Positions 5,245-61,021 of a stretch of DNA of 64,000 nt are shown piece by piece. The first letter of the stretch is position 1; every line of letters begins with the position of its first letter. The translations under genes were made by a program, and so were the position numbers. The notes beneath the pieces are model-generated. The model saw only the letters and a program-made list of their open reading frames with translations. It did no database searches and was not told the origin of the DNA. The stretch is taken from positions 87,670-151,669 of the forward strand of contig JAIXYO010000065.1 in assembly GCA_027490215.1 (NCBI GenBank), given 5' to 3'. The stretch comes from Rubrivivax sp. GTDB lineage: Bacteria; Pseudomonadota; Gammaproteobacteria; Burkholderiales; Burkholderiaceae_C.

Positions 5245-5605
5245 GCTGCCGAGGCCATGAGGTGACCGGCTCCGCTCGTGCCTGGGGACAGAGCCCCCAG
5301 GCGCTCGTCAGGCACAAGCAGTCCTCAGGACTGCTTGTGTCCGGGCTTGCTCCCCCGGGCCGGGTCACCTCCCAAACGCTTGGGTAGGACCGATCCGGCC
5401 TTCCTCCTTTACTTCGCTGCGCCGGTCACCCCACGCCCTCGGCAGCCGGCACCACCGTTGCACACCCAGATATCACCCCCGCGGACGTTTCGGTGGTTGT
5501 AGGAGCGCTGTGACGGGCCGTTGTGTGGAGCGAAGTAAAGGAGGAGGGCCTGTCTTTTCAGGCCCGGGGGACATGAGCGCAACACAACGGCTCGGCGCAG
5601 CGCTC
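5245..5605 (+). repeat. Compound palindromic element, copy A (units X + Y)
   Basis: The 361-bp copy has unit X at 5245-5446, a 56-nt spacer at 5447-5502 and unit Y at 5503-5605. Outer arms of X begin GCTGCCGAGG and end CCTCGGCAGC; outer arms of Y (5503-5526 with 5582-5605) pair over about 24 bp. Both units carry the core GAAGTAAAGGAGG, on the minus strand in X and the plus strand in Y. X carries about 70 extra bases near 5281-5350 with two private hairpins (5281-5301 and a perfect 12-bp stem at 5313-5339). The inner loop of Y is shortened. It lies between the convergent echA and lysS genes; the rest of that 525-bp gap shows nothing else. Confidence 0.85.
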
Positions 5606-5706
5606 ACGCGCGGACCCAGCTACGTCAGCTTCGATACTGCGCCGGCGCCTGCCGAACAAGCAGCAGGGTGTCATCAGCAAAGTCGGTCGTTTTGCGCCGC
5701 GCGCGT

Positions 5707-7269
5707 TCAACCTTCCTTGCGCAGCGACGGGAACAGGATCACGTCGCGGATGCTCGGGCTGTCGGTGATCAGCATCATCAGGCGGTCGATGCCGATGCCG
5801 CAGCCGCCGGTCGGCGGCATGCCGATCTCCAGGGCGCGGATGAAGTCGGCGTCGTAGTACATCGCCTCCTCGTCACCGGCGTCCTTGTTGGCCGCCTGGG
5901 CCTGGAAGCGCGCGGCCTGGTCTTCGGCATCGTTCAGTTCGGAAAACCCGTTGGCGTATTCGCGGCCAGTGATGAAGAGCTCGAAGCGTTCGGTGATCGA
6001 CGGGTCGGTGTCCGAGGCGCGGGCCAGCGGGCTGACTTCGACCGGGTAGTCGATGATGAAGGTCGGGTTCCACAGCTGTTCCTCGACCACCGCCTCGAAC
6101 AGGCCGAACTGCAGTTCGGGCAGCTTCCAGTGCGCCGGCGGTTCCTCGCCCAGTGACTTCAGCTTCGCGCGCAACACCTGCACATCGCCTGCTTCAGCGG
6201 CGCTCAGGCCGGCGTAGGCGACCAATGAATCGCGCACCGTGAGTCGGGTGAACGGCGCATCCAGGTCGACCGTCTTGCCGCCATAGCTGAGCGTGGCCGA
6301 ACCGGTGGCGCCGCGCGCCGCGTGGCGCAGCACCTGCTCGGTGTAGTCCATCAGGTCGTGGTGGTTCCAGTAGGCGGCGTAGAACTCCATCATCGTGAAT
6401 TCGGGGTTATGCCGCACGCTGATGCCTTCGTTGCGGAAGCTGCGGTTGATCTCGAACACCCGCTCGAAGCCGCCCACGATCAGCCGCTTCAGGTACAGCT
6501 CGGGCGCGATGCGCAGGAACATCTGCTGATCGAGCGCGTTGTGGTGGGTGACGAAGGGTTTCGCGTTCGCGCCACCCGGGATCGGGTGCAGCATCGGCGT
6601 CTCGACTTCCATGAAGCCGTGGTCGACCATGAACTGGCGTATCGAACTCAGCGCCTTGCTGCGGGCGGTGAAACGCGCCCGGGCGGCGTCGTCGGTGATC
6701 AGGTCGACGTAGCGCTGGCGGTACTTCTGCTCCTGGTCGCTCATGCCGTGGAACTTGTCGGGCAGCGGGCGCAGGCTCTTGGTCAGCAGGCGCAGCGTGG
6801 TCACCCGCACCGACAGCTCGCCGGTCTTGGTCTTGAACAGCAGTCCCTCGGCGCCGAGGATGTCGCCCAGGTCCAGGTGCTTGAACGATTCGTAGGCTGC
6901 CTCGCCCAGCGCGTCCTTGGTGACGAACAGCTGGATGCGCCCGCCAGTGGCGCCGAGTGATCCGTCCTGCAGAGTGCAGAAGCTGGCCTTGCCCATCACC
7001 CGTTTCAACAACATCCGACCGGCCACGCTGACGGTGAGGTTCAGCGTTTCGAGTTCCTCGTTACTGCGCTCGCCGTATGCCGCAACCAGTTCGGCGGCGC
7101 GGTTCGCGGGTTTGAAGTCGTTCGGGAAGGCGACACCGCCACTGGCTTTCGCGGACTCGCGGATGGCGGCAAGCTTCTCGCGGCGCTCGGTAATCAGCTG
7201 GTTCTCGTCAGCCGCAGGGCCTGTGGTGCTCGGCGCGGGCGCTGAGGAAGGGGTGTGTTCTGGGGTCAT
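5707..7269 (-). CDS. lysS: Lysyl-tRNA synthetase, class II
   Basis: Charges tRNA-Lys with lysine. The 520-residue protein has an N-terminal OB-fold anticodon-binding domain ([16 protein letters not shown]) and a class II catalytic core. Motif 2 is in [20 protein letters not shown] and motif 3 in [12 protein letters not shown] near the C-terminus. The start is placed at ATG 7269 (MTPEHTPSS); upstream in-frame ATG codons would add an unlikely tail. The extension before residue ~35 is Ser/Pro/Ala-rich. It is transcribed toward element copy A and divergent from the polysaccharide locus. Confidence 0.95.
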
Positions 7270-7442
7270 GAGTGCGCGGTCGGTGTGATCGTTGATTTTA
7301 GGTTGGGGCATTCCAACCAATGCTGCAGCGGGCGTGCCTAAAATCCCGCGCATGCCCGAACACGCATTTGCAGACGCCGCACGATGAGCACTTGTGTCGC
7401 CACCGTGGGCATGCCGTGCCGCCGTGATCGGCGAGCCAGCCG

Positions 7443-8030
7443 ATGAGCCTGATTCATCCGACGGCGGTGATCGACCCAGGTGCGCAGCTCGGGGCGGGAA
7501 CCCGGGTGTCGCACTTCGTGCATGTGTGTGCAGGTGCCCGCATCGGTACCGACTGCGCTCTGGGCCAGGGCGTCTACATCGGCAATGAAGTCAGCATCGG
7601 GCGCAACGTCAACATCCAGAACAATGTGTCCGTGTACGACGCGGTGACCCTCGAAGACGACGTCTTCTGCGGTCCGAGCGTGGTCTTTACCAATGTCTTC
7701 AACCCGCGCGCCGCGGTGTCGCGCGATGGAGAGTTGTGCAAGACGCTGATCCGCCAGGGCGCGACGCTCGGCGCCAATTGCACCGTGGTTTGCGGCACCA
7801 CCATCGGTCGCCACGCCTTCGTCGGCGCCGGGGCGGTCGTCAGCCGCAACGTGCCGGATTTCGCGCTGGTGGTCGGCGTGCCCGCCCGCCAGATCGGCTG
7901 GATGAGCCGACACGGCGAGCCGCTGGCCTTGCCGCTCAAGGGCGACGGCATCGCTTCGTGCCCGGCCAACGGGGAGCGTTATGTGTTGCGCGAAGGGTTA
8001 TGTAGTCTGGCGACGGAAGTGCCGGCTTGA
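7443..8030 (+). CDS. Left-handed beta-helix N-acetyltransferase, WbpD-like
   Basis: A 195-residue hexapeptide-repeat acyltransferase. Repeated [LIV]-G-x4 units run from about residue 8 to 150, and the stretch NNVSVYD...[11 protein letters not shown] and the closing [11 protein letters not shown] match the WbpD/WlbB type, which acetylates an amino group on a UDP-linked amino sugar using acetyl-CoA. It is the first gene of the plus-strand polysaccharide block. Its partner could be the DegT aminotransferase at 14925. The WbpA/WbpB dehydrogenases of the classical WbpD pathway are not in this window, so the exact sugar is inferred only. Confidence 0.8.
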
Positions 8031-8059
8031 GCGATCTCTGATCTGCCGCATTCGCCCTC

Positions 8060-8833
8060 ATGCGCCATGAAGACCGCTGGATCGAAAGCAAGTATGTGCT
8101 GCGCCGGGGGCGCTTGCGAGCCTCGCGTGATTCAACTGAGGTCGGAATCGGCTCCCGACTGATCACGGACCGCATTGCGTCGCTGTATGACCAACATCTG
8201 CCTCACTGTGCCCGTGGCCGGCTGATCGACCTGGGTTGCGGCAAGGTTCCGCTCTACGGCGCCTATCGCCGCCTGGTCGACGACGTGACCTGCGTGGACT
8301 GGCCGCAGTCGGTGCGCACCAGTGCCCACCTTGATCTGCAAGCGGACTTGTCGCAACCGCTTCCCTATGCCAATGCGAGCTTCGACACGATCATCCTGTC
8401 CGATGTGCTGGAACACGTGCCAACGCCCGACGCCCTGTGGTTCGAGATGGCGCGCCTGCTGGCCCCGGGCGGGTACGTTCTGCTGAACACACCCTTCCTT
8501 TACGGTGTGCACGAGGCGCCGCACGACTACGGCCGCTACACCGAATATGCGCTGCGGCGTTTCGCGCTGCAGGCCGGACTGGAGGTGCGCTTGTTGCTGC
8601 CGGTCGGTGGCAGCCTGCATGTGCTGGCCGATCTGCTGGCCAAGCACCTGGCGCACCTGCCGGCCGTCGGCGGCGCGCTGGCTTCAGCTGTTCAGGGCGT
8701 CGTCGCGCTGCTCGACCTCAGCCGCTTCGGGCGGCGTGTGTCCACGCGCACCGCCACACGATTTCCGCTGGGCTATTTCATGGCGGCCCAGCGCCCGCTG
8801 GCGGCCGGCGCTGCGCTGGCTGCTGTCGGATGA
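8060..8833 (+). CDS. Class I SAM-dependent methyltransferase
   Basis: A 257-residue protein with a Rossmann methyltransferase fold: motif I LIDLGCGKVPLYG (about residues 53-65), the acidic ribose-binding residue in VTCVDWP, and the motif LSDVLEHVPTPD followed by LAPGGYVLLNTPF, as in Methyltransf_11/25 proteins. Its stop overlaps the start of the flippase gene (ATGA at 8830-8833), so the two are probably translationally coupled. A role in methylating the polysaccharide or a glycan precursor is inferred from location. The substrate is unknown. Confidence 0.8.
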   Translation: MRHEDRWIESKYVLRRGRLRASRDSTEVGIGSRLITDRIASLYDQHLPHCARGRLIDLGCGKVPLYGAYRRLVDDVTCVDWPQSVRTSAHLDLQADLSQPLPYANASFDTIILSDVLEHVPTPDALWFEMARLLAPGGYVLLNTPFLYGVHEAPHDYGRYTEYALRRFALQAGLEVRLLLPVGGSLHVLADLLAKHLAHLPAVGGALASAVQGVVALLDLSRFGRRVSTRTATRFPLGYFMAAQRPLAAGAALAAVG

Positions 8834-10026
8834 GGCCGTCGCAGCGCGCATTGCTGACCTACGTTGCGGCCCGTGTCGTCCCGGCGATCGCGTCGATGGC
8901 GCTGACCTTGCTGTGCATCGACGCGCTGCGACCGGAGGACTATGCGAGCTACAGCCTGACGTTGCTGGCCGCGGGTGTGGCTGCGGGTTTTGTCGGTGGG
9001 GTCAGCGCGCAGGCGATGCTGCGCTATGCGCGGGAGTTGTCTGCGTCGGCCTTGCGGCGCGGGCTGCTCGGCGTGCCCTTGTTGGCGTCGGCTCTGGCCT
9101 GCCCGCTGGTCGCGGCTTACCTGGCGTGGCGCGGCCAGTGGTCGGCGGCGGCGCTGATCGCGATCGCGGCCATACCGGCGCTCGCGGTGATGGACACCCG
9201 GCGCAGCCTCTTCGTTGCCGTCGCGCGTGCCGATGCGGTGTTTGCGCTCGATGCCTGGCGCGCTGGCCTCGCCCTGCTGCTGACCTTCGTTCTGTTGAAT
9301 CTGTGGGGCGCGCGCCCGGAGTCACCGTTGTTGGCGCAAGCACTGTCGGTGTTGGCCGGCCTGCTGCTGGTGGGCAGCCGGCGCGCCGCGATGGTTCCCG
9401 CCGGCAGTCGCGCCATCGATGCCCGGTACCTGGGCTACGGCGTCGGTCTGGCGGGCTGGATGGCGGTGATCGTCGCGCTGTCGCTGGCCGAGCGGTCGGT
9501 CGTGGCTGCCGCCTCGGGGCTGGCCGCCAGCGGGCGCTATGCCGCGCAGGCCGATGTGATCAATGCGGTGTTCGCGGCGCTGGGCGGTGCGCTGGCCCAG
9601 GCGATGATGCCGGCCTACCTGGCACAAGCGGCCGATCCCGACCAGGCTGCCTTGCGTCGCCTGCGCCGGCTCGCGCTGCTCGGCGTGCTGGCGATAGGCG
9701 GCTTGTGTGTGCTGCTGGGGGGCGCGTTGGCGGTGTCGGGCCTCGGGCGAATCTCGACGGCATTGACCGATGACAGGTCGACCGCCTTCGTCCTGGTTGC
9801 GGCGGGCGCGCTGTGGACCGCTGCTGGCTTCGTGCAGAAGCCCATCGAACTGCGTGGCCGCACGCACTGGCTGTTTGCCGGAGTCGGGTTGTCGCTGCTG
9901 CTGTTCCTGCTGATCGCACCGATGCTGGCCGAGCGCCACGGCCCGATCGGTGTGGCCGCGGCCAAGCTGATCGCCGGGCTGGCCTACACCGGCATGGCCT
10001 GGCAGCTGTGCCGCACACGCCGATGA
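8830..10026 (+). CDS. Polysaccharide flippase-like multi-spanning membrane protein (Wzx/MOP type)
   Basis: A 398-residue integral membrane protein with about 10-12 hydrophobic helices from LLTYVAARVVPAIASMALTL to the C-terminus, with short basic loops. Size, topology and position among glycosyltransferases fit a lipid-linked oligosaccharide flippase. The start is set at ATG 8830, which overlaps the upstream methyltransferase stop; the longer upstream frame lies inside that gene. The stop overlaps the next glycosyltransferase start by the same ATGA pattern. Sequence divergence in this family makes the Wzx assignment moderate only. Confidence 0.7.
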   Translation: MRPSQRALLTYVAARVVPAIASMALTLLCIDALRPEDYASYSLTLLAAGVAAGFVGGVSAQAMLRYARELSASALRRGLLGVPLLASALACPLVAAYLAWRGQWSAAALIAIAAIPALAVMDTRRSLFVAVARADAVFALDAWRAGLALLLTFVLLNLWGARPESPLLAQALSVLAGLLLVGSRRAAMVPAGSRAIDARYLGYGVGLAGWMAVIVALSLAERSVVAAASGLAASGRYAAQADVINAVFAALGGALAQAMMPAYLAQAADPDQAALRRLRRLALLGVLAIGGLCVLLGGALAVSGLGRISTALTDDRSTAFVLVAAGALWTAAGFVQKPIELRGRTHWLFAGVGLSLLLFLLIAPMLAERHGPIGVAAAKLIAGLAYTGMAWQLCRTRR

Positions 10027-11012
10027 CATTCGCGGTGGTCATCGTCAACTGGAATGGGGCGGCCGACACGCTGGCCTGCCTGGAATCCATTTATGCCGGC
10101 TCCGATCAGGCGCTGGCCATCATCGTCGACAACGGATCGTCTGACGATTCGATCTTGCGGATCACGAACGCGCTGGTGCAACAAGGCATCGAATTGCTTC
10201 GGGTTGCGCCCACCGTCATGCCCACGACGTGGGGCGGTGCCCGCGTCCTGCTGATCGAGGCTGGCGAGAACCTCGGCTTCGCAGCGGGTTGCAACCTCGG
10301 GTTGCGCGCCGCGGCTGCGACGGCCTGCGACGCCACCGTGTTCCTGAACAACGACACCGTGGTCGAAGCCGATGCACTCGATCGCATCGTGGCGCGGCTC
10401 ATCGGCGACCCCGCGTGCTACGCCTGCCTGCCGATGCTGACAGTGCACGGCAGCGACCGCATCTGGAATTGCGGCGGTGCGGTTTACCCGATCGGTGTGC
10501 GGCGCTATCACCTGGCCGGTCGGCCTCGTGCCGAGGGCGCGCAGCGCGGCGAAATCAGCTGCAGCTTCTTCACCGGCTGCTGCTTCGCGGTGCGTACTGC
10601 CGATTTCGCGGCCCGGGGCGGGTTCTCCGAGCGCTTCTTCTTTGGCGAGGAAGACTTCGAACTCGCGCTGTGGATGCGCGACCGCGCACTGTCGGCGGTG
10701 TGCCTGACGACCGCCGTGGTGCAGCACAAGGTCAGCGCGTCATTCAATGCGGCAGCGGGCCCGCGCCAGAATGCCCGGGTGTTCATCTACTACCTCAACC
10801 GCTTCATCCACATGCGCCTGCGCTTCGGTGCAGTGCGCTGGTGGTGCTGGCTCGCGGCCTACCTGCCCTATGTTGCCGTGCTGTTGTGGCGCAGCGGTCG
10901 CTGGTCACCGGGTGAATTGCGTGGCTTTCTGCGTCGTCTGGTGCAGCGGGCGCGGACCATGGATCGGGTGACCCGCGATGATTTCGAGGCGGTGATGGCG
11001 GGCCGGCTGTGA
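10023..11012 (+). CDS. Family 2 glycosyltransferase (rhamnosyltransferase-like)
   Basis: A 329-residue GT-A glycosyltransferase. It opens with VVIVNWNGAADTLACLES, the nucleotide-binding strand is VDNGSSDDS, and the metal-binding motif is FLNNDTVV (NND variant of DXD). GFAAGCNLGLR and the acceptor-side ED motif FFGEEDFELALW follow, all as in WcaA/WbbL-type enzymes that often transfer rhamnose. A hydrophobic segment near the C-terminus (WWCWLAAYLPYVAVLLW) suggests membrane association. ATG 10023 overlaps the flippase stop. The dTDP-rhamnose genes downstream make rhamnose a reasonable donor guess, not a demonstrated one. Confidence 0.82.
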   Translation: MTFAVVIVNWNGAADTLACLESIYAGSDQALAIIVDNGSSDDSILRITNALVQQGIELLRVAPTVMPTTWGGARVLLIEAGENLGFAAGCNLGLRAAAATACDATVFLNNDTVVEADALDRIVARLIGDPACYACLPMLTVHGSDRIWNCGGAVYPIGVRRYHLAGRPRAEGAQRGEISCSFFTGCCFAVRTADFAARGGFSERFFFGEEDFELALWMRDRALSAVCLTTAVVQHKVSASFNAAAGPRQNARVFIYYLNRFIHMRLRFGAVRWWCWLAAYLPYVAVLLWRSGRWSPGELRGFLRRLVQRARTMDRVTRDDFEAVMAGRL

Positions 11013-11995
11013 GTGCGGTTCCGCGTCTCGACTCAGGGCCGCGCTGCCGCATCTGCCACAGCCTCGGCCCCTTCCAGGATCACCGTGTGCGCGACATGAT
11101 GTTCGGCCCGGGCGAGCATTTCGACTACCGGCTGTGCGCGGCCTGCGGTTGCCTTCAGATCGCCGAGATCCCGGCGGACTTGTCGCGCCATTACGGCGCG
11201 GGCTATTACTCGTTTGGCGAGCGCACGACACCAGGTCGCCTGAGCGGTCTGCTGGTGCGCGCGCGCAACCGTCATCTCATCGGGCGCAAGAACCCTCTGG
11301 GCTGGGCGCTGGCGAAGCTGCGGCCTTTCCGCGCGCTGGCTTCGCTGCAGCCCTTGGGTTTGCGGCTTGACGTGCGCATCGTCGATGTCGGCTGCGGTAG
11401 CGGCGAACTCCTGCTGGCCTTGCAGTCGGCCGGCTACACACGGCTGCACGGTGTCGACCCGTTCATCGAGCAAGACCTCGACCTGGGCGGTGGGCTTCGC
11501 GTGCAGAAGGCCGAGTTGGAGGCCTTGCCTGCATCGGCGTTCGATCTGGTGATGTTCCACCATTCGCTCGAACACATCGTCGACGAGCCCGCGGCCTTGC
11601 GCGCGGCGCACCGACTGCTGGTGCCCGGTGGTCGCTGTCTGGTGCGCATCCCGACCGTCAGCTCGCACGCCTGGCAGCACTATGGCGTCGACTGGTGCGC
11701 GCTCGATGCGCCCAGGCATCTGGCGCTGCATTCGCGGCAGAGCATCGGTTTGCTGGCCGAGCGTTGCGGGTTCAGGGTGTCCCGCATCACCGACGATGCC
11801 GACGCCTTCCAGTTCTGGGGCAGCGAGCAATACCGACGCGGCATCCCGCTGATGCGCAGCGGCTGCCACGACATCGCGCCGGCGCCGGGTGCGTTCACGG
11901 CCGCGCAGTTGCGGGACATGGATCGCCGCGCCGATCGGTTGAACCGCGAGCAAGCGGGCGACCAGATCGCAGTCGAGCTGCAGCGCGTCGAATGA
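11009..11995 (+). CDS. Class I SAM methyltransferase with N-terminal Cys4 motif
   Basis: A 328-residue protein starting at GTG 11009, overlapping the previous stop. The N-terminal ~50 residues hold two Cys pairs (CRIC and CAAC) that look like a zinc-binding element. A methyltransferase domain follows, with motif I VRIVDVGCGSGELLLAL and the FHHSLEHIVDEPAAL / LVPGGRCLVRIPT segments. This arrangement is typical of the methyltransferases found in O-antigen and capsule loci, often annotated as Methyltransf_23. A 46-bp gap separates it from the next gene. The substrate is unknown. Confidence 0.8.
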   Translation: MSAVPRLDSGPRCRICHSLGPFQDHRVRDMMFGPGEHFDYRLCAACGCLQIAEIPADLSRHYGAGYYSFGERTTPGRLSGLLVRARNRHLIGRKNPLGWALAKLRPFRALASLQPLGLRLDVRIVDVGCGSGELLLALQSAGYTRLHGVDPFIEQDLDLGGGLRVQKAELEALPASAFDLVMFHHSLEHIVDEPAALRAAHRLLVPGGRCLVRIPTVSSHAWQHYGVDWCALDAPRHLALHSRQSIGLLAERCGFRVSRITDDADAFQFWGSEQYRRGIPLMRSGCHDIAPAPGAFTAAQLRDMDRRADRLNREQAGDQIAVELQRVE

Positions 11996-12041
11996 ACAGG
12001 CCGCTGCACGGACCCCGAGGCCGGTCGATCGCCACCGCCCG

Positions 12042-13154
12042 ATGAAGCTGCTGATGCTCGCGCCGGCCAGCGTGATCCACACCCAGCGCTGGGTCGAGGC
12101 GCTGCACGAGCGTGGTATTCAACTGGTGCTGGCGACGCAGCACGATGAAGGGTCGTGGCAAGTGCCGGACGGCGTGCGGCTGGTTCGCCTGCCGCACCGC
12201 GGAACGCCGGGCTACTTTCGCAATGTGCCTGCGCTGAGGCGGCTGCTGCGCGAGGTACGGCCCGATCTGCTCAGCGCGCACTACGCCAGCGGCTACGGCA
12301 CCACCGCTGCGCTTGCCGGCTTCCGGCCCTGGTTGCTGTCGGTCTGGGGCAGTGATGTCTACGACTTCCCGTACGAGGGCTGGCTCCAGGGCTGGCTGCT
12401 GCGCTGCAACCTGCGACACGCCGATGCGGTGGCATCGACCAGCGAGGCGATGGCGCAGCAGGTGCGCCGACTGGTGCCCGGCATCGGCCCGGTCGCGGTG
12501 ACGCCTTTCGGCATCGACACCGAGCGTTTCGCGCCGCAGCCGCAGCCTCACGAAGGCATCGTGATCGGCACCGTGAAGACGCTGGCGCCGAAGTACGGCA
12601 TCGATCTGCTGCTTCGGGCGTTTGCGCAGGTGCTCTCTGCTGCGGGCCCGAGCGCCTTGCTGTCGCTGGTCATCGTGGGTGACGGCCCGCAGCGCGCTGA
12701 GCTCGAGGCATTGAGCGCCACGCTGGGTATCGCGGCCCACGTGCGTTTCGCCGGTGCCGTGCCGCACGCCGAGGTGCCGCTGTGGTTGAACCGCTTCGAC
12801 CTCTACGTGGCCGCGAGCCGGCTCGACAGCGAGAGCTTCGGCGTCGCGGTGCTCGAAGCGTCGGCCTGTGCTTTGCCCGTCGTGGTCAGTGATGTTGGGG
12901 GCCTGCCCGAGGTGGTGGTGCAGGGCGAGACAGGCTGGGTCGTTCCGCGCGAAGACGTACCTGCATTGGCGCAGGCGATTCAGCGGCTGATCGACGCACC
13001 CGAAATGGGCCGCCGTCTCGGTGCAGCCGGGCGCGAACGGGTACTCGCGCACTACCGCTGGCAGCACAGCGTCGATGAGATGCTGCGCTGCTTCGAAGCC
13101 GTCATTTCGCACCGTGCGCAGCGGCGCACCGTGTCGGCAGGCACTCTCCAATGA
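12042..13154 (+). CDS. Family 4 glycosyltransferase
   Basis: A 370-residue GT-B retaining glycosyltransferase. The N-terminal domain begins MKLLMLAPASVIHTQRW, the acceptor domain continues to about residue 170, and the donor domain carries VIVGDGPQRAELEALS and the E-x7-E region SESFGVAVLEASACALPVV followed by SDVGGLPEVV. These mark a family 4 enzyme using a nucleotide-sugar donor. Its last bases overlap the start of the next glycosyltransferase (ATGA at 13151-13154). Donor and linkage cannot be read from the sequence. Confidence 0.88.
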   Translation: MKLLMLAPASVIHTQRWVEALHERGIQLVLATQHDEGSWQVPDGVRLVRLPHRGTPGYFRNVPALRRLLREVRPDLLSAHYASGYGTTAALAGFRPWLLSVWGSDVYDFPYEGWLQGWLLRCNLRHADAVASTSEAMAQQVRRLVPGIGPVAVTPFGIDTERFAPQPQPHEGIVIGTVKTLAPKYGIDLLLRAFAQVLSAAGPSALLSLVIVGDGPQRAELEALSATLGIAAHVRFAGAVPHAEVPLWLNRFDLYVAASRLDSESFGVAVLEASACALPVVVSDVGGLPEVVVQGETGWVVPREDVPALAQAIQRLIDAPEMGRRLGAAGRERVLAHYRWQHSVDEMLRCFEAVISHRAQRRTVSAGTLQ

Positions 13155-14185: not shown

Positions 14186-14208
14186 CCTGACGCGCGGACA
14201 ATTCTCCC

Positions 14209-16109: not shown

Positions 16110-16125
16110 TCGCGTCGACGCATCG

Positions 16126-42923: not shown

Positions 42924-42998
42924 GCCCCCCAGTCGCTGCGCTCCTGCCCCCGAGGGGCTTGCCCGGCTTCGGACGGCCGGGCGCCGGGCGGGCCCCCC
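42924..42998 (+). repeat. Short intergenic repeat R1, copy b, abutting recO
   Basis: Near-identical to 4279-4355: the two differ by a single-base gap in each copy and a few substitutions. The same two hairpins (GCCCC-CGA-GGGGC and GCCCGGC/GCCGGGC) are intact. It occupies almost the whole 78-bp gap between the era stop and the TTG start proposed for recO. Confidence 0.75.
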
Positions 42999-43000
42999 TG

Positions 43001-51690: not shown

Positions 51691-51709
51691 CGCGCTCGGC
51701 CCTGGCACC

Positions 51710-53124: not shown

Positions 53125-53164
53125 GCTTCAGCGCACCGCGCTTCCCCTTTTTTCTTCCTCATCG

Positions 53165-54004
53165 ATGTCCGATCGTCTGGCGGTACTGCCGCAATACCTG
53201 CTGCCCAAGCAGGCCCTGACCGCGCTGGCCGGCCGCATCGCCGGTGCCGAAGCCGGCGCCTTGACCACGCGGCTGATCCGCTGGTTCGTCGGCCGCTACG
53301 GCGTGAACATGGCCGAAGCGGCCGAGCCTGACATTGCGCAGTACCCGAGCTTCAATGCGTTCTTCACCCGAGCGCTGAAACCGGGCGCCCGTCCGCTGGC
53401 CGACGCGCCGTGGGTGTGCCCGGTCGATGGCGCGATCAGCCAGATCGGCCCGCTCGACGGCGAGCGGCTGGTGCAGGCCAAGGGTCATCACTACACAGCG
53501 ACTGCGCTGGTTGGGGGTGACGCAGCGCTGGCAAGAGAGTTCAACGGCGGCCACTTCGCGACGCTGTACCTGAGCCCGCGCGACTACCACCGCATCCACA
53601 TGCCCGCGGATGGTCGCCTGCGCCGCATGATCCACGTGCCCGGTGAACTGTTCTCGGTCAACCCGACGACCGCGCGTGGCGTGCCCGGGCTGTTTGCACG
53701 CAATGAGCGTGTGGTGTGCGTCTTCGATGGCGACACCGCGCCGTTCGTGATGGTGCTGGTGGGCGCGACCATCGTCGGCAGCATGGCGACGACATGGCAC
53801 GGTGTCGTCAACCCGCCGCGGTCAGGCCTGTTGCGCGAATGGAATTACGCGTCGGGTGATGTCAGCCTGGTGCGCGGCCAGGAGATGGGGCGTTTTCTGT
53901 TGGGGTCAACAGTGGTGATGCTGTTTCCGCCAGGGCCGCTGTCGTTCAACCCCAACTGGGCACCGGGTGGGGCGATTCGCATGGGTGAGGCGATGGCTTC
54001 GTGA
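53165..54004 (+). CDS. psd: Phosphatidylserine decarboxylase proenzyme
   Basis: Makes phosphatidylethanolamine from phosphatidylserine in the inner membrane. The 279-residue proenzyme self-cleaves at the LGST motif (Ser248 becomes the pyruvoyl group). Other family blocks are YPSFNAFFTRALKPGARP, CPVDGAISQIG, YLSPRDYHRIHMP, VNPTTARGVPGLFARNERVV and VGATIVGSM. The start at ATG 53165 gives MSDRLAVLPQYLLPKQ as in related proteins. It is followed by compound repeat copy B and converges with ureG. Confidence 0.95.
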   Translation: MSDRLAVLPQYLLPKQALTALAGRIAGAEAGALTTRLIRWFVGRYGVNMAEAAEPDIAQYPSFNAFFTRALKPGARPLADAPWVCPVDGAISQIGPLDGERLVQAKGHHYTATALVGGDAALAREFNGGHFATLYLSPRDYHRIHMPADGRLRRMIHVPGELFSVNPTTARGVPGLFARNERVVCVFDGDTAPFVMVLVGATIVGSMATTWHGVVNPPRSGLLREWNYASGDVSLVRGQEMGRFLLGSTVVMLFPPGPLSFNPNWAPGGAIRMGEAMAS

Positions 54005-54022
54005 AAGTCGATTTCAGTGCGT

Positions 54023-54342
54023 GAGCGCTGCGGCGGGCCGCTGTGTTCCGTTCATGTCCTCCGGGCCGGTTCACCCGACGTTCGCTTCGGCTCAGATCGC
54101 TTCGGCCCTCCCCCTTTACTTCACTCCACACAGCGGCCCACCGCAGCGCTCCAACAACCACCGAAGCATTCTGAGGTTTAGAACACCTTTGCATGCGACA
54201 ACGGTGCCGGCTGTCGAGGGCGTGGGGTGACCGGCGTAGCGAAGTAAAGGAGGAAGGCCGGTTCGGTCTGCCCCGAAACGAAGGGCTGGTGACCCGGCCT
54301 GGGGGACATGAGCGGAGCCGGTCACCCCGCGCCCTCGACAGC
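54023..54342 (-). repeat. Compound palindromic element, copy B (inverted)
   Basis: Intact 320-bp copy in the opposite orientation to copies A and C: unit Y at 54023-54151 (129 bp), spacer 54152-54209 (58 nt), unit X at 54210-54342 (133 bp). Y outer stem: 54023-54046 pairs with 54128-54151, 23 of 24 positions. X arms begin GCTGTCGAGGG and end CCCTCGACAGC. The GAAGTAAAGGAGG core is on the plus strand in X (54240 region) and as its complement in Y (54110 region). It fills most of the 379-bp psd-ureG convergent gap; the remaining 19 and 41 bp show nothing else. Confidence 0.9.
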
Positions 54343-54383
54343 TCCGAGCGCAAGGCGGCAGGTTCGACGATGCGCAGTCCGCG

Positions 54384-55049
54384 TTAAGTCAATTCGCCCG
54401 TCAACATGCCCTTGCGCTCGATGAAGCTGACCACATCGGCCAGGCCCTGGCGGGTTTTCAGGTTGCTCATCACGAAAGGCCGGAGGCCCTGCGCGCTGGT
54501 GCGCATGCGGGTGGTGTCGGCTTTCATCACATCGAGATCCGCGCCGACATGCGGCGCCAGGTCGATCTTGTTGATGACGAAAAGATCGCTCTTCGTGATG
54601 CCAGGCCCGCCCTTGCGCGGGATCTTCTCGCCAGCGGCCACATCGATCACGTAGATCGTCAAGTCGCTCAACTCCGGGCTGAAAGTCGCCGCCAGGTTGT
54701 CGCCACCCGACTCGATGAACACGATGTCGGCGTCGGGGAATTTCTCCAGCATGCGGTCCACCGCTTCGAGGTTGATCGACGCATCCTCACGAATCGCGGT
54801 GTGCGGGCAGCCGCCGGTTTCCACGCCCATGATCCGGTCGGCGGATAACGCGCCAGCCACGGTGAGCAGACGCTGGTCTTCCTTGGTGTAGATGTCGTTG
54901 GTCACCACCACCAGGTCGTACTGCTCGCGCATCGTCTTGCAGAGCATCTCCACCAGCGTCGTCTTGCCTGAACCCACGGGGCCACCAACGCCAACGCGCA
55001 GTGGGGGCAGCTTCTTGGTGCGGTGGGCGATGGTGTGGAGTGCGGTCAT
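54384..55049 (-). CDS. ureG: Urease accessory GTPase UreG
   Basis: GTPase that delivers nickel to apo-urease together with UreE, UreF and UreD. The 221-residue protein has the P-loop GPVGSGKT (residues 23-30), [15 protein letters not shown], the metal-binding CPH in [17 protein letters not shown] and [15 protein letters not shown], then [14 protein letters not shown]. It is the last gene of the minus-strand ureEFG group and points at element copy B. Confidence 0.97.
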
Positions 55050-55088
55050 GGTGTGAATGGCGTCAAGGGTGTTGAAACTGCAGCAAGT

Positions 55089-55859
55089 TCAGGACCTGAA
55101 CAGCCGCGAGTACTGGGTTTCGTGCTGCGCCGACAGGATCGCCAGCATCGGCGTGCAGACCTGCCGCTCGGCGTCGCTGAGCTGGATCGCCGCATCGACA
55201 GCGCCGGGGATCTCGGCCGCCAGCGCGCTCAGGATCCGTTGCCCTGCCGACTGGCCCAGTGGCACTGACTTCAACGCTGCTTGCACCATGTTCTCGGCCC
55301 AGCCGAACGCGAAACAGAGGAGCGTTTCGCGGCACGGCGCGCCGCTCTGCAAAGCAGCCAGGGCGAAGGCCATGGGCCAGGTCGGCGCCGGGCGCAGCGC
55401 CGCCAGCGTATGCAACGGGTCGACGTTGCGCTCGTCGAGCGGCCGGTTCTTCATCCACTCGACCAGCGAGCGGCCCATTTGTTCGGTTTGCTGGCGCAGC
55501 TCAGAGCTTTCCCGCGTGGTGACCACCCAGGTGTTGAGGGCAGCGGCCTCGGCCATGTCGCCGCGTCGCCAGGCGCTGTGGGCCCGCGCGACCAAGGCCA
55601 GATCGCCGCGCGCCAGGCCCAGGTGCAACTGATCGAGCAGCCACTGGCAGGCGTTGGCTTCGGTCGCTGCCAGGCCCGCATCCACGGCGGCTTCCAGCGC
55701 CTCGGAGTAGCTGAACCCGCCCACGGGCAGCGCGGGCGAAGCCAGCCAGACCAGCTGCAGCAGCGAAGCCGGCGTCAGACTCGGCGCCTGAGCCGAAGGC
55801 CGCCGGTGTTGACGGCGCCCAGTCGATCGCATCGCTGGCCGCAGCCGAGGTGTGCCCAT
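55089..55859 (-). CDS. ureF: Urease accessory protein UreF
   Basis: A 256-residue helical protein that bridges UreD and UreG on apo-urease. Family features are [23 protein letters not shown] near the start and [19 protein letters not shown] near the end. ATG 55859 shares a base with the ureE stop, giving an Arg-rich leader of ~25 residues before the conserved part; ATG 55832 would shorten it. UreF N-termini vary, so either is possible. It lies 39 bp upstream of ureG. Confidence 0.93.
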
Positions 55860-56488
55860 CAGTGGTCGTGCTTGCAACCCGGGCCGTGCACGTGGGGCAC
55901 GGCAGCACCCTGGATCGGAATGGTCTTGGGCGCGGCGGAGGCCGACGGCGCGTGCGCATGGCCGTGGTCGTGTCCGTGGTCATGGTCATGTGCGTGGCCA
56001 TGATCGTGCCCACCAGCGGCCGCGCCCGGTGCGTATGCACCGCTTTCCGGTTCGAACGAAGCCTGTGCTTCGCTCACGGTCAAGTGCATCTGGCGCAACA
56101 GGTCGGCCAGCACATGGTCGGGTTCGAGCTTCAGGTGATCTGGTTTCAGTTCGAGCGGCACATGGCGGTTGCCCAGGTGATACGCCGCGCGCACCAGGTC
56201 GAAACTCGAGCCGTGCTCCTTGCAGGGCGTGACCACCAGCACCGGCTGTGGCGCTGCCTGGACCGCGATCAGGGAACCGTCTTCGGCGACCAGCACATCG
56301 CCGCCGCGCACCACCGCACCGCGCGGCAGGAACACGCCGAGCGCTCGCCCTTGCGAGTCGGTGGCATCGAAGCGGCTCTTCTGGCGCACGTCCCAGTCGA
56401 GGGAGACCGTGGCGGCGCGGGCCAGCAGCACGCGGCTCAGTCCGCGTCCCTGGGTGATGAGCTTGTTGATGGTCAGCAGGGTGGACAT
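55859..56488 (-). CDS. ureE: Urease accessory nickel chaperone UreE with His-rich tail
   Basis: A 209-residue nickel carrier. The N-terminal peptide-binding domain (residues 1-75) is followed by the metal-binding domain with [16 protein letters not shown] and the His-containing [18 protein letters not shown]. The C-terminus has a His/Asp-rich run (alternating [23 protein letters not shown] residues) and a final [11 protein letters not shown]. Such tails bind several Ni ions. ATG 56488 ([11 protein letters not shown]) is the family start. It is divergent from fbpA across 217 bp. Confidence 0.95.
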
Positions 56489-56623
56489 GTCGGTGGGCGC
56501 TTGCGGCGCAGCTGAAGCAGTTGAGAAGGCCAAGAGTCTGGCATGACTGGGGCTCAAGGCGCCACCGATCACGACGTGCGGTGCAACACCGAAGACACCA
56601 TCTGCCGCGCGGGAATACGGAAT

Positions 56624-56642
56624 GTTAATGAGAATGGTTTCG
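56624..56642 (+). promoter_or_regulatory. Candidate Fur box upstream of fbpA
   Basis: The 19 bases GTTAATGAGAATGGTTTCG match the Fur consensus GATAATGATAATCATTATC at 12 of 19 positions, with the better half first. It lies 64-82 bp before the fbpA ATG. Iron-repressed expression of a ferric-iron binding protein would fit. The match was counted by eye. Confidence 0.5.
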
Positions 56643-56705
56643 TATACAGTTCCTATCCGGCGTCTTCATTCCCTGTTCCCACCACTGTCATACCGAGGCC
56701 TGTCC

Positions 56706-57743
56706 ATGATCCGTCTGCCATTCATTTTCGGTGCCCGCATTGCGGCCGCCAGCGTGCTGTCTGCCTTGTTGGCTGCCCCTCTGGCGTACGCGCAGGGCGA
56801 ACTCAACATCTACTCAGCGCGCCACTACCAGACCGATGAAGCGCTGTACACCGACTTCACGAAGCAGACCGGCATCAAGATCAACCGCCTCGATGGCAAG
56901 GAAGAGGAACTGCTCGAACGGCTCAAGAACGAAGGCGCCAGCAGCCCGGCCGACCTGCTGATCACGGTGGACGCTGCGCGGCTGGAAATCGCCGACAAGG
57001 CCGGGCTGTTCCAGCCGCTGAAGTCGTCGGTGATCGAGGCGCGCATTCCAGCGGCGCTGCGCACGCCGAACTGGGCGGCGTTCTCGACGCGCGCACGGGT
57101 CATCGTCTATGCCAAGGCCACCGTCAATCCGGAGTGGGTGCAGACCTACGAAGACCTGGCGCTACCGCGGCTGAAGAATCAGCTCTGTGTGCGGTCCGGC
57201 GCTCACCCCTACAACCTGTCGCTGGGTGCTGCCGTGCTGGCGCATGACGGCGAGGCGAAGACCGAGGAATGGGCGCGTGGCCTCGTGTCGAACTTTGCCC
57301 GGGCCCCGAAGGGAGGCGACACCGATCAGTTGAGGGCGGTGGCGGCCGGTGAATGCGGTGTGGCGATCTCGAACAGTTACTACCTCGCCCGCCTGATGCG
57401 TTCGACCAAGCCGGAAGACCAGCAGGTCGTGCGGGCCTTGGGCGTCGTCTGGCCGAACCAGAAGACCTGGGGTGCGCACATCAATGTGTCGGGCGCTGGC
57501 ATCACCAGGTACGCGCCGAACCCGGCCGCCGCGCTGAAGTTCCTCGAGTACCTCGCGAGCGACTCGGCGCAGGTCTACTTTGCCGATGGGAACAACGAAT
57601 GGCCGGTCGTCAAAACCGCGCCCGTGAAGAACCCTGCGCTCGAAGCACTGGGGTCCTTCAAGCCGGACACGCTCCCTATCGGCCAATTGGCGGCCAACGC
57701 GGCGCAGGCCCAGCGCATCTATGACCGCGCCGGCTGGCGCTGA
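56706..57743 (+). CDS. fbpA: Ferric-iron ABC transporter, periplasmic binding protein
   Basis: A 345-residue periplasmic protein that captures Fe(III) and hands it to the inner-membrane transporter. The signal peptide (about residues 1-29, ending APLAYAQG) is followed by LNIYSARHYQTDEALYTDF and the Tyr pair in ISNSYYLARLM typical of FbpA/FutA metal-binding tyrosines. The start is placed at ATG 56706 (MIRLPFIFG), which gives a proper signal peptide; the longer in-frame ATG at 56622 lies in the Fur-box area. It is convergent with the permease gene. Confidence 0.92.
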   Translation: MIRLPFIFGARIAAASVLSALLAAPLAYAQGELNIYSARHYQTDEALYTDFTKQTGIKINRLDGKEEELLERLKNEGASSPADLLITVDAARLEIADKAGLFQPLKSSVIEARIPAALRTPNWAAFSTRARVIVYAKATVNPEWVQTYEDLALPRLKNQLCVRSGAHPYNLSLGAAVLAHDGEAKTEEWARGLVSNFARAPKGGDTDQLRAVAAGECGVAISNSYYLARLMRSTKPEDQQVVRALGVVWPNQKTWGAHINVSGAGITRYAPNPAAALKFLEYLASDSAQVYFADGNNEWPVVKTAPVKNPALEALGSFKPDTLPIGQLAANAAQAQRIYDRAGWR

Positions 57744-57781
57744 GCAAGGCCCAAGCGCACCGAAAGCCAGCTCGGGAGCGC

Positions 57782-59470
57782 CTATCGCCGATCGTTTGCG
57801 ATCTGGCGGCAGAGCACGATCAGCGGCAACAAGCCCACGGCCACGATCGCGATCGTGGCCGTCGACGCTTCGGCCAGCCGTTCGTCTGATGCCAGCGTGT
57901 AGGCCTGGGTGGCGAGCGTGTCGAAGTTGAATGGGCGCATCACCAGTGTGGCGGGCAGTTCCTTCATCACATCGATGAAAACCAGCAGCCCGGCAGTCAG
58001 CAGACCACGCCGCATCAGCGGCAGGTGCACGAGGCGCAGCGTTCGAACCGGTGACAGGCCCAGGCTGCGAGCCGCGTCATCCATGTGGGGTGTGACGCGG
58101 TAGAGCGTCGAATCGACCGTCTGCAGTGCGGCGGTCATGAAGCGCACCAGGCAGGCGAACACCAGCGCGGCAATGGTCCCGGTGAAGAGCAGTCCCGTTT
58201 GCCAACCGAAGCTGGCTTGCAGCCATTGCGCCAATGCGTTGTCCAGCCGGGCCATCGGAATCAGCACGCCGACGGCGATCACCGACCCCGGCAGCGCGTA
58301 GCCGAGGCCGACCGCCCAATGCGCCGATCGGGTCAGCGGCAGAGGCTCCAGCCGTCTGGCGTAGGCGACGAGCAGTGCGAGCACCACGGCGAGAAGGGCG
58401 GTCAGGCCAGACACCAGAACGCTGTTGCGGGCCAGCGTCCAGAAGCGGGCCCCGAACTGCGCGTCCCCTTCGGTCATGGCCATGTGCAGCAGCACACCGC
58501 CAGGCAGCACGAAGCCGATCAGGATGGGCAACGCGCACAGTGCGACCGCTACCGCGGCCTGCAGACCGGTGAGCGGCGCGCCGCGGGTCGGCTGGCGGCG
58601 CAGCCCGCTGCCGTGAAAGCGGGCGGTACCGCGCGACTGACGCTCCAGCGCCAGCAGCAGCACGACGAAGCCGAGCAGGCACATCGCCAATTGCGCGGCA
58701 GCCACCCGGTCGCCCAGTGAGAACCAGGCCCGGTAGATGCCGGTGGTGAAGGTCTGCACCGCAAAGTAGGACACCGTGCCGTAGTCGGCCAGCGTTTCCA
58801 TCAACACCAAGGCCATGCCTGCGGCCACCGCGGGCCGTGCCATGGGCAGGGATATGCGCAGAAAGCTCTGCCACGGCGACAGCCCCAGCGAGCGGCCTGC
58901 CTCCATGACGGCGACGCCGCGTTCCATGAACGCCGAGCGCGCCAGCATGAACACGTAGGGGTACAACACAAAGGTGAACATCACCACCGCGCCACCCAGC
59001 GTGCGCACGTCGGGGAATGAGTAATCAGCGCGCGTCCAGCCCATCGTCGCGCGCAGCCAGCTTTGCAGCGGGCCAGCGAACTGCAGCAGATCGGTGTAGG
59101 CGTAGGCCATCACATAGGCCGGCATCGCCAGGGGCAGCACCAGCGCCCATTCGAAGCTGCGGCGCAGCGGGAAATCGAAATGCGTGACCAGCCAGGCCGT
59201 GCCCACGCCGACCAGCGCGGCCAGGCTGCCGACGCCGACACACAGCCACAGCGTGGTGGTGATGTACTCCGGCAGCACCGTCGACACCAGGTGCGCCCAG
59301 GTGTCGCCAGTGCCAGTCGAAAACACATTCGTCGCCACCGACAGGATCGGCAGCGCGACGAACAGCGCCACCACGGCGGCAGCCACGCTCAGCCATCCGA
59401 TCTGACGTCGATGGGTCAGGCTCGCGGCATCGAGGGACGATGGTGGAGGGGAGGCGGAGGCGGCGGTCAT
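57782..59470 (-). CDS. fbpB: Ferric-iron ABC transporter, permease (duplicated domain)
   Basis: A 562-residue inner-membrane permease made of two related halves, each with about six helices. The cytoplasmic EAA loops are EAGRSLGLSPWQSFLRISLP in the first half and DDAARSLGLSPVRTLRLVHLP in the second, which contact the ATPase FbpC. This architecture is typical of FbpB/AfuB-type Fe(III) permeases. It is on the minus strand, convergent with fbpA and divergent from fbpC, so the three subunits cannot share one transcript. Confidence 0.92.
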   Translation of the reverse strand: MTAASASPPPSSLDAASLTHRRQIGWLSVAAAVVALFVALPILSVATNVFSTGTGDTWAHLVSTVLPEYITTTLWLCVGVGSLAALVGVGTAWLVTHFDFPLRRSFEWALVLPLAMPAYVMAYAYTDLLQFAGPLQSWLRATMGWTRADYSFPDVRTLGGAVVMFTFVLYPYVFMLARSAFMERGVAVMEAGRSLGLSPWQSFLRISLPMARPAVAAGMALVLMETLADYGTVSYFAVQTFTTGIYRAWFSLGDRVAAAQLAMCLLGFVVLLLALERQSRGTARFHGSGLRRQPTRGAPLTGLQAAVAVALCALPILIGFVLPGGVLLHMAMTEGDAQFGARFWTLARNSVLVSGLTALLAVVLALLVAYARRLEPLPLTRSAHWAVGLGYALPGSVIAVGVLIPMARLDNALAQWLQASFGWQTGLLFTGTIAALVFACLVRFMTAALQTVDSTLYRVTPHMDDAARSLGLSPVRTLRLVHLPLMRRGLLTAGLLVFIDVMKELPATLVMRPFNFDTLATQAYTLASDERLAEASTATIAIVAVGLLPLIVLCRQIANDRR

Positions 59471-59498
59471 GCGGGGGATATCATCGCGGCGCGTCGTG

Positions 59499-59520
59499 AA
59501 CGCGATTGATTCTCAGACAG
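59499..59520. promoter_or_regulatory. Weak candidate Fur box between fbpB and fbpC
   Basis: The complement reads CTGAGAATCAATCG, which keeps the TGAGAATCA core seen in Fur sites; about 10 of 19 positions match the consensus. It sits in the 104-bp divergent gap and could serve both fbpB and fbpC. The match is weaker than the fbpA site. Confidence 0.3.
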
Positions 59521-59574
59521 TGTACGACCCGTGTGGACGGCGACGCGCCTGCATGCCACCGACCAGCCCCAACG

Positions 59575-60654
59575 ATGACCACCCCGACTCCCGTCCCTGT
59601 CCTGAGCCTGAACGGCGTGCGTCATGCCTACGGTGCGCGAGCCACCGTCGATGGACTGGATCTGGCACTGTCCACTGGCAGCATCTGCTGTCTGCTGGGA
59701 CCCTCGGGCTGCGGCAAGACAACGGTGCTGCGCTGCATCGGCGGCTTTGAGCCGCTGGCCGGTGGCGACATCCGCATCGCGGGCGAGGTGGTCAGCGGGC
59801 CGGGCCGGCATCTGCCACCCGAGCAGCGTCGCATCGGCATGGTGTTTCAGGACTACGCGCTGTTCCCGCACTTGAGCATCGAGCGCAATGTCGCTTTTGG
59901 AACGCATGGCAGCGCTGAAGACCAAGCGCGCGTGGATCGTCTGCTCGACATGGTCGGCTTGAAGTCACACGCGCAGCGCTACCCCCACGAGCTGTCCGGC
60001 GGACAGCAGCAACGTGTGGCGCTGGCTCGTGCGCTGGCGCCACAGCCGCGACTGTTGCTGATGGATGAGCCGTTCTCGAACCTCGATGTCGATTTGCGCG
60101 AACAACTCGCGACAGAAGTGCGCGAGATCCTCAAGGCCACACACACCACCGCAGTGTTCGTCACCCACGATCAGAACGAGGCCTTCGCGATGGCCGACGA
60201 GATCGCGGTGATGTCCGACGGCCGCATTCAGCAGATCGACACCGCCTACAACCTCTACCACAGCCCGGCCAGTCGATTCGTCGCCGACTTCATCGGTCAG
60301 GGCGTGTTTGTGCGCGGCACGGTGATCGCCGAGCGGCAACTCCTGATCGAGATCGGAGCGGTCTCGGCCCTCGAGGACATCCGCTATGCCTCCGACGGAA
60401 GACCGTGCCCCACCGGCAGCCAGATCGATGTGCTGCTGCGCCCCGACGACGTGGTGCACGACGACACCAGCTCCGCACAGGGCATCGTGCGGCACAAGGC
60501 ATTCAGGGGTGCGCAGATCCTGTACACGCTCGAGCTGGCAAGTGGCACCCGCGTGCTGTCGATGGTGCCGTCGCACCACAACCACCGCCTCGGCGAGGCC
60601 ATCGGCATCCGCCTCGACCTGGACCACCTGATCGCTTTTCCGGCGGCGGCTTGA
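59575..60654 (+). CDS. fbpC: Ferric-iron ABC transporter, ATP-binding protein
   Basis: A 359-residue ATPase that powers the FbpB permease. Walker A is GPSGCGKT (residues 42-49), the signature LSGGQQQR, Walker B LLLMDEPFSNLD, and the switch His is in VFVTHDQNEAF. A C-terminal TOBE-like domain (about residues 240-355, RPDDVVHDDTS and HHNHRLGEAIGIRL) may sense regulators. ATG 59575 (MTTPTPVPVLSLNG) is chosen over a longer in-frame start. It ends 50 bp before element copy C and converges with ureC. Confidence 0.95.
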   Translation: MTTPTPVPVLSLNGVRHAYGARATVDGLDLALSTGSICCLLGPSGCGKTTVLRCIGGFEPLAGGDIRIAGEVVSGPGRHLPPEQRRIGMVFQDYALFPHLSIERNVAFGTHGSAEDQARVDRLLDMVGLKSHAQRYPHELSGGQQQRVALARALAPQPRLLLMDEPFSNLDVDLREQLATEVREILKATHTTAVFVTHDQNEAFAMADEIAVMSDGRIQQIDTAYNLYHSPASRFVADFIGQGVFVRGTVIAERQLLIEIGAVSALEDIRYASDGRPCPTGSQIDVLLRPDDVVHDDTSSAQGIVRHKAFRGAQILYTLELASGTRVLSMVPSHHNHRLGEAIGIRLDLDHLIAFPAAA

Positions 60655-60703
60655 AATCGTGTGTTGGCATGCAAGCGTCGTTGCGCGCAACCTTTCGCGC
60701 GAT

Positions 60704-61021
60704 GCTGTCGAGGGCGCGGGGTAACCGGCTCCGCTCATGTCACCCGGGCCGGCTCACCGCTCAGGGGCTTCGAGTCGAGTTGATCCGGCCCTCCTTCTTT
60801 ACTTCGCTGCGCCGGTCACCCCACGCCCTCGACAGCCGGCACTTTGGTTGAACACCAAGGAATTCAAGCTCCGACTGCTTCGGTGGTTGGGAGAGCGCTG
60901 CGGTGGGCCGCTGTGTGGAGTGAAGTAAAGGAGGAGGGCCGGCGGAGATCGACCCGAAGCGAACTGATGGTGAACCGGCCCGGGGGACATGAACGCAACA
61001 CAGCGGCCCGGCGCAGTGCTC
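60704..61021 (+). repeat. Compound palindromic element, copy C (units X + Y)
   Basis: Intact 318-bp copy, same orientation as A: unit X at 60704-60836 (133 bp), spacer 60837-60892 (56 nt), unit Y at 60893-61021 (129 bp). X arms begin GCTGTCGAGGG and end CCCTCGACAGC. Y arms (60893-60916 with 60998-61021) form a ~24-bp stem with one mismatch. Inside Y the order is GAAGTAAAGGAGGAGGGCC, variable loop, then CCGGCCCGGGGGACATGAACG; X carries the same core reversed. It occupies most of the 406-bp fbpC-ureC gap, with 49 and 39 bp of featureless flank. Confidence 0.9.

What the first reader, a model, noticed from the sequence alone, without database searches (positions are those of the whole stretch)
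5245..61021. A three-copy compound palindromic element of about 320 bp, built from two different hairpin units
Seen: three loci (5245-5605, 54023-54342 inverted, 60704-61021) share the same layout: unit X, a 56-58 nt spacer with conserved ends (CGGCAC at one end, TTCGGTGGTTG at the other), and unit Y. In the two intact copies X is exactly 133 bp and Y exactly 129 bp. X and Y have unrelated outer stems but the same inner core (GAAGTAAAGGAGG on one arm, GGGGGACATGARCG on the other) in opposite orientation. No transposase or coding gene lies within. I cannot match it to REP, BIME, ERIC or any MITE I know. It could be a non-autonomous mobile element, a bidirectional termination/processing element, or a structured RNA.
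Basis: seen in the sequence. Interest (0 to 1): 0.78.

Follow-up and report, generated by a model that had tools for sequence, protein, structure and literature searches.

The report
Paired strand-specific hairpin repeat family
Scattered through this bacterium and about half of the sampled genomes of its family is a short non-coding element made of two back-to-back hairpins, one on each DNA strand, whose shape selection appears to protect strand by strand; it is likely a mobile repeat copied by a still unidentified enzyme, and it has no match in the Rfam catalogue of RNA families.

Summary
The element is X (133 bp), a 56-58 bp spacer and Y (129 bp). X and Y are two inverted copies of one hairpin: variable outer stem, conserved purine-rich internal loop (GARGTAAAGGAGGA opposite GGGGGACAYGARCG), variable inner stem-loop. 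The own genome has 27 match places. A covariance model finds the hairpin in 142 of 299 sampled genomes of the family (79 of 141 genera), patchily in two other families of the order and one of the class. Paired hairpins are almost always head-to-head: 35 of 37 loci, 27 of 27 close pairs. Stem mismatches are mostly G.T, rarely A.C, on the purine-core strand, which is minus for X and plus for Y (41:3 and 40:5). So each strand seems to carry one hairpin selected as a single strand. Copies sit at gene 3' ends, often between convergent genes; 0 of 37 classed in the genus lie between divergent ones. Presence shows no association with Y1 (RAYT-type) transposases or reverse transcriptases. Best reading: a REPIN-like non-autonomous element with an unknown partner; RNA versus single-stranded DNA is unresolved.

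The parts
5245..5446 (-). Copy 1, hairpin X (purine-core strand is minus), enlarged by an insert of about 70 nt at about 5282-5350
   Evidence: weak R1 hit 5325-5435 minus, 22.1 bits
5447..5502 (.). Copy 1, spacer
5503..5605 (+). Copy 1, hairpin Y (purine-core strand is plus), short apical loop
   Evidence: R1 hit 5512-5595 plus, 98.2 bits (this unit is among the 19 the model was built from)
54023..54151 (-). Copy 2 (inverted), hairpin Y
   Evidence: R1 hit 54033-54142 minus, 80.6 bits
54152..54209 (.). Copy 2, spacer
54210..54342 (+). Copy 2 (inverted), hairpin X
   Evidence: R1 hit 54221-54330 plus, 84.8 bits
60704..60836 (-). Copy 3, hairpin X
   Evidence: R1 hit 60716-60825 minus, 82.7 bits; folds alone at -87.1 kcal/mol, z -8.5
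60837..60892 (.). Copy 3, spacer
60893..61021 (+). Copy 3, hairpin Y
   Evidence: R1 hit 60902-61011 plus, 87.5 bits; folds alone at -67.7 kcal/mol, z -5.6

Best explanation
This is a dispersed non-coding repeat made of two inverted copies of one conserved hairpin, so that each DNA strand carries one hairpin that selection appears to maintain as a single strand, and it likely spreads as a non-autonomous mobile element whose hairpins would be gripped, through their purine-rich internal loop, by an unidentified enzyme acting in trans. SHOWN: the repeat, its head-to-head architecture, the covarying stems, the strand-specific wobble bias on opposite strands for X and Y, near-identical copies at unrelated sites, presence and absence between the same two genes, location at gene 3' ends, and no association with Y1 (RAYT-type) transposases or reverse transcriptases. 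INFERRED: that the wobble bias is selection, that the acting strand is single-stranded DNA (as exposed at a replication fork, the way REP hairpins are used) rather than RNA, that a protein recognises the internal loop, and that movement rather than recombination between copies spread it.
For: Copies: 27 match places in the own genome; 15 of 60 genomes by BLAST, own included, 12 of these among the 15 genus members; 142 of 299 family genomes, own included, by covariance model. Structure: 19 of 22 pairs with changes on both sides in 19 sequences, 13.5 when shuffled; 595 cells with changes on both sides in 91 distinct sequences, 157 when shuffled. Architecture: 35 of 37 multi-hairpin loci are minus-then-plus (one duplicate removed), 27 of 27 close pairs in 14 genomes other than the own. 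Strand-specific bias: on 23 near-full-length genus copies, gathered by BLAST or neighbour gene without using structure, G.T against A.C is 41:3 for X on minus and 40:5 for Y on plus. Both C>T (65) and A>G (16) give the G.T cells, while G>A (8) and T>C (0) give A.C, so a one-strand C>T mutation bias alone does not explain it. Resident copies: at 4 orthologous sites, 13 non-independent comparisons, one-sided stem changes are 50 WC/G.T, 5 WC/A.C, 11 WC/other, while spacers are 63-100% identical. Core: 122 of 123 units keep matched variants on the two sides of the internal loop; X and Y vary independently (24 of 36 alike, 24.3 when shuffled). Spread: seven G286 copies 86-99% alike (an eighth 79-82%) and five G240 copies 93-98% alike, matching only within the element. 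Empty site: G003 has the two flanking genes 6 bp apart where G000 has 525 bp. In co-directional pairs the better-scoring hairpin is sense in 10 of 21, which fits a strand-symmetric DNA role.
Against: No enzyme was found. No target-site duplication was seen in four G286 copies. Orthologous copies persist across species of the genus and keep their stems, which also fits a host function. Parts replace each other at fixed sites (L002 and L035 have identical spacers but different X), so recombination between copies could account for part of the dispersal. The minimum-energy fold of the whole strand pairs X with Y rather than making two local hairpins, as RNA and as DNA, although evolution gives no sign of X-Y matching. 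The strong convergent-gene bias in the genus (26 of 37, partly orthologous copies) fits a transcript-end role as well. In the model-fitted alignment the number of pairs with changes on both sides (21 of 22) was reached by 5 of 500 shuffles. Which state of the G003 site is older is unknown.
Confidence: 0.5

Rival explanations
1. A host RNA element: each strand's hairpin acts in the 3' end of transcripts coming from either side, for example blocking 3' exonucleases or recruiting an RNA-binding protein, and the convergent position serves both genes.
For: G.T wobble on the purine strand; convergent neighbours at 12 of 18 own-genome copies and 14 of 19 in other genus members (partly orthologous), against 75 of 696 background neighbour pairs; short distances to the stop codons at most of the 18 own copies with both neighbours called; resident orthologous copies keep their stems.
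Against: In co-directional loci the sense hairpin is not better kept than the antisense one: 10 of 21 pairs, and of 8 single hairpins 2 are sense and 6 antisense (duplicate removed). No promoter-like site around copy 3 and no conserved sequence apparent by eye in spacers across genera. No Rfam family.
Confidence: 0.3
2. An ordinary MITE: a short relic moved by a DDE transposase through terminal inverted repeats, the inner hairpins being passengers.
For: Imperfect terminal inverted repeats read by eye in G286, G240 and one own-genome subfamily; GGCCCRTTGCRGTCKTTCGC with up to 3 mismatches has 35 sites against 6 for the reversed control in G240, 17 against 6 in G000, 13 against 7 in G286.
Against: The ends differ between lineages while the internal cores are conserved; no target-site duplication in four copies; a passenger would not be expected to show G.T over A.C on opposite strands.
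Confidence: 0.13
3. A bidirectional intrinsic transcription terminator.
For: Stable hairpins at gene ends, all three window copies between convergent genes.
Against: No T-run after the hairpins; the two terminator-like calls near copy 3 lie outside it; terminator-like hairpins lie beside copies L003, L007 and L010 (read by eye); an internal loop conserved across families is not needed for termination.
Confidence: 0.04

Closest known systems
REPIN / BIME (paired inverted REP sequences linked to RAYT / TnpA-REP)
   Same: Two inverted hairpin units with a spacer, extragenic, compensatory changes, one unit in functional orientation per strand, a conserved mismatched zone in the stem of E. coli REP; strand-specific recognition of single-stranded REP and not inverted REP is reported for TnpA-REP (passages of PMC3116915 and PMC8266576).
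   Different: Unit of 85-133 nt instead of 20-40 (REP size from the abstract start of PMC3733652); X and Y have unrelated outer stems; no GTAG tag (9 of 107 upstream stretches against 17.4 shuffled); the Y1 domain is absent over cut-off in 15 of 15 genus genomes, two having weak sub-cut-off hits, and shows no association with presence in 299 genomes.
MITEs (IS-derived miniature elements)
   Same: Short, non-coding, multi-copy, inverted ends in some lineages.
   Different: The conserved part is internal and structured; ends vary; no target-site duplication seen in four copies; no parent transposase found.
Burkholderiales-1 candidate motif (PMC2864571, 2010 list)
   Same: Listed for the same order, RNA status given as ambiguous (table passage).

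Membership tests
REPIN / REP-RAYT | Pair of inverted palindromic units separated by a spacer, extragenic | tested here: met
   35 of 37 multi-hairpin loci, 27 of 27 close pairs
REPIN / REP-RAYT | GTAG (or CGTC) tag at the foot of the unit | tested here: not met
   In the 60 nt upstream of the unit: GTAG 9 of 107 against 17.4 shuffled; CGTC 21 of 107 against 30.7
REPIN / REP-RAYT | RAYT (Y1 transposase domain) in the genome | tested here: not met
   0 of 15 genus genomes over cut-off, 2 weak; 36 of 142 carriers have no hit, Fisher p 0.79 for association. PF01797 does not tell RAYT from IS200 enzymes
REPIN / REP-RAYT | Unit length 20-40 nt | tested here: not met
   85-position model; 133 and 129 nt in this window
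MITE | Terminal inverted repeats | tested here: inconclusive
   Read in G286, G240 and one own subfamily; G286's differ from the others
MITE | Target-site duplication | tested here: inconclusive
   None seen by eye in four G286 copies with both flanks; other copies not systematically tested
Known Rfam RNA family | Score at or above a curated threshold | tested here: not met
   Whole window (only RF02514, outside the element); copy 3 region, best sub-threshold hit 23.4 bits against a threshold of 90
Intrinsic terminator | G+C-rich hairpin followed by a T-run | tested here: not met
   copy 3 region only: two calls, both outside the element
ERIC | 127 bp conserved enterobacterial palindrome | not tested
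   No alignment with ERIC was made

The most novel reading that the evidence does not exclude
A new class of mobile or RNA-based system in Burkholderiales: a paired hairpin whose conserved internal loop is built of consecutive purine-purine pairs, with one active hairpin per strand, propagated by an enzyme family not yet connected with dispersed repeats.
Probability: 0.4. Interest if true: 0.82.

Novelty: new variant of a known kind. Interest (0 to 1): 0.66.

Why it matters
About half of the sampled genomes of a large environmental family carry this element, and it was not found in Rfam or in the paper searches made. It offers a case in which strand-specific selection on each half of an inverted pair can be measured, and it suggests that REPIN-like architecture can exist without RAYT. 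The matched variants across the internal loop (A.G, G.A, C-G and G-C at one position, G.G and A-T at the next) predict a defined three-dimensional fold that a binding screen can use to fish out the partner.

Tried and rejected
Y1/RAYT as driver: no association. Reverse transcriptase as driver: 64 of 142 carriers against 66 of 157 non-carriers, p 0.64. X pairing with Y as the selected structure: core variants independent, although it is the minimum-energy fold. Divergent promoter in the spacer: none called at copy 3, spacers look unrelated between genera. mRNA 3' end acting on the sense hairpin only: no sense preference. A gene carried by the recent G286 and G240 copies: the shared stretch is only up to about 350 bp per match; open frames were listed mechanically around L198 only and no protein search was made there. 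Phage carriage: no match of the window query in phages, and none in two exact-pattern scans of viral contigs. Plasmids: the 20 listed of 35 records hit by the window query match only its urease-gene end. A query from G085 found three Variovorax megaplasmids whose stretches hold a minus-plus pair each and no listed annotation; two of them share one locus at 95% identity. Papers: core-oligo text searches gave 1 unrelated paper and 25 papers, 20 listed, all unrelated by title; topic searches (20 of 46, 20 of 64, 20 of 35 and 3 of 3 listed) showed no such element in titles or abstract starts. Papers seen as passages only: PMC2864571, PMC2267715, PMC3116915, PMC8266576; in PMC3733652 none of the six searched Burkholderiales-related names occurred.
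Full report
What is there. The three copies are real and as described. Read on the strand that carries the purine core, X and Y are the same object: an outer stem, then G.S.A.G.Y against R.C.G.S.A, then GARGTAAAGGAGGA on one side and GGGGGACAYGA on the other, then an inner stem-loop. X has that strand on minus, Y on plus. Copy 1 has an extra insert in X. All three copies lie between convergent genes (own codon-model gene caller trained on the window).

How widespread. In the own genome (3.5 Mb, 72 contigs) the 318 bp query gives 27 separate match places; several lie at contig ends and may be halves of one copy. By BLAST 15 of 60 genomes match, own included: 12 of the 15 genus members and 3 others. 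A covariance model (R1, 85 positions, built from 19 units with a structure I drew) hits 142 of 299 genomes sampled from the family and 79 of 141 genera (at most 15 places per genome were scored, so copy numbers are floors). Wider samples, all with the own genome included and partly overlapping: 5 of 369 in the class (two own family, two in family f37, one weak at E 0.0097), 15 of 310 in the order (five own family, eight of f13, two of f21), 7 of 309 in the phylum (four own family, three f37). So the distribution is dense in one family and patchy beyond. By the neighbouring urease gene, the closest named genome returned is MAG PBB1, Burkholderiales (99%; the window's own records may be left out there).

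Structure. In the 19-sequence alignment 97.8% of cells pair (72.4% shuffled, 33-39% when slid), and 19 of 22 pairs change on both sides (13.5 shuffled, none of 500 as high; the structure came from these sequences, so the slid control is lenient). In 91 distinct model-aligned units 96.8% pair and 595 cells change on both sides (157 shuffled); the number of such pairs, 21 of 22, was reached by 5 of 500 shuffles (fitted to the model). The internal loop covaries in an unusual way: GGAGG faces GGGGG, GGGGG faces GGAGG, GAAGG faces GGGTG, and C-G or G-C occur at the middle position; 122 of 123 distinct units fit, the exception having GAAGG opposite GGGGG. An earlier looser count shows the same three main classes and one unit with GGAGG on both sides.

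Strand specificity. G-C and A-T pairs can decay to G.T or to A.C, and in double-stranded DNA both should be equally likely because G.T on one strand is A.C on the other. On 23 near-full-length genus copies (orthologues included, partial copies dropped), X read on minus has 541 Watson-Crick, 41 G.T, 3 A.C and 12 other cells; Y read on plus has 498, 40, 5 and 8. Over 111 units from many genera, collected with a filter that counts G.T as paired, it is 81 against 2. The G.T cells come from C>T (65) and A>G (16), the A.C cells from G>A (8) and T>C (0). Column identity is 94% in outer stems, 95-96% in the core, 71-80% in apical loops and 75-78% in the spacer. The simplest reading is selection on each hairpin as a single strand, on opposite strands.

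Architecture and position. Of 54 distinct loci analysed (one search held 55, one a duplicate; loci had been fetched by their best model hits or BLAST hits), 37 have two or more hairpins: 35 are minus-plus, one minus-minus-plus, one plus-minus. Among 98 listed hits in 14 genomes other than the own, the 27 close neighbours are all minus-plus, with lineage-specific gaps (63-66 in f21, 109-176 in f13). Three Variovorax megaplasmid loci are minus-plus too. Neighbouring genes: own genome 12 convergent, 6 co-directional, 0 divergent of 18 with both neighbours called (8 of 26 fetched copies dropped, one neighbour not called); other genus members 14, 5, 0 of 19 (3 of 22 dropped); background 75, 552, 69 of 696 pairs (the background includes some element-bearing gaps). 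Across genera 17, 30 and 4 of 51; the gene caller made some doubtful calls there. In co-directional pairs the sense hairpin scores better in 10 of 21, and single hairpins are sense in 2 of 8, so a role confined to the upstream gene's mRNA is not supported.

Mobility. In G286 seven copies are 86-99% alike and an eighth (L203) 79-82%, and in G240 five are 93-98% alike, matching only within the element. G286 copies end in imperfect inverted repeats, read by eye, without visible target-site duplication in four of them. Between the gene ending at 5181 and the one ending at 5707, G003 has 6 bp where G000 has 525 bp including the element; G009 and G013 also carry it and G006 a remnant. Which state is older is not known. 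At orthologous sites parts are exchanged as modules, for example L002 and L035 have identical spacers but different X.

Partner. The Y1 domain occurs in 106 of 142 carriers and 115 of 157 non-carriers (p 0.79); reverse transcriptases in 64 and 66 (p 0.64). Neither is a candidate on this evidence.

Conclusion. The element works most like a REPIN: inverted pair, strand-specific single-strand hairpin with a mismatched zone, dispersed and extragenic. It is not a member of the REP/RAYT family by the tests made (no GTAG, no RAYT link, other size). Single-stranded DNA is preferred over RNA because both hairpins are kept equally whatever the neighbours' direction, but this is an inference; the RNA reading keeps about 0.3.

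Noticed in passing
window 5282-5350 (about); also L007, L013, L014, L025, L027, L052, L219: An insert of about 70-80 nt with two hairpins sits at the same point of the internal loop (between GGGGGA and CATGARCG) in several copies, on X or on Y: a module nested in the element (read by eye).
   Followed up: partly
window 4279-4313 and 42924-42958: An exact 35 bp repeat, overlapping a 52 bp pair at 83% identity, G+C-rich and of another kind.
   Followed up: no
window 62331-62625: Rfam 5_ureB_sRNA (RF02514, 79.7 bits) on the plus strand, antisense to the gene at 61061-62788, whose end matches ureC, urease alpha.
   Followed up: no
L051 (G009) about 1726-1783: A stretch of about 57 nt interrupts the strand-1 core of Y in one copy.
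   Followed up: no
G000, G240, G286: Terminal motif GGCCCRTTGCRGTCKTTCGC recurs above its reversed control most clearly in G240 (35 against 6) and might mark the ends of a wider family of repeats.
   Followed up: partly
G029: Fourteen Y1 transposase matches in one genome without a listed hairpin hit: probably an ordinary IS200-like expansion.
   Followed up: no
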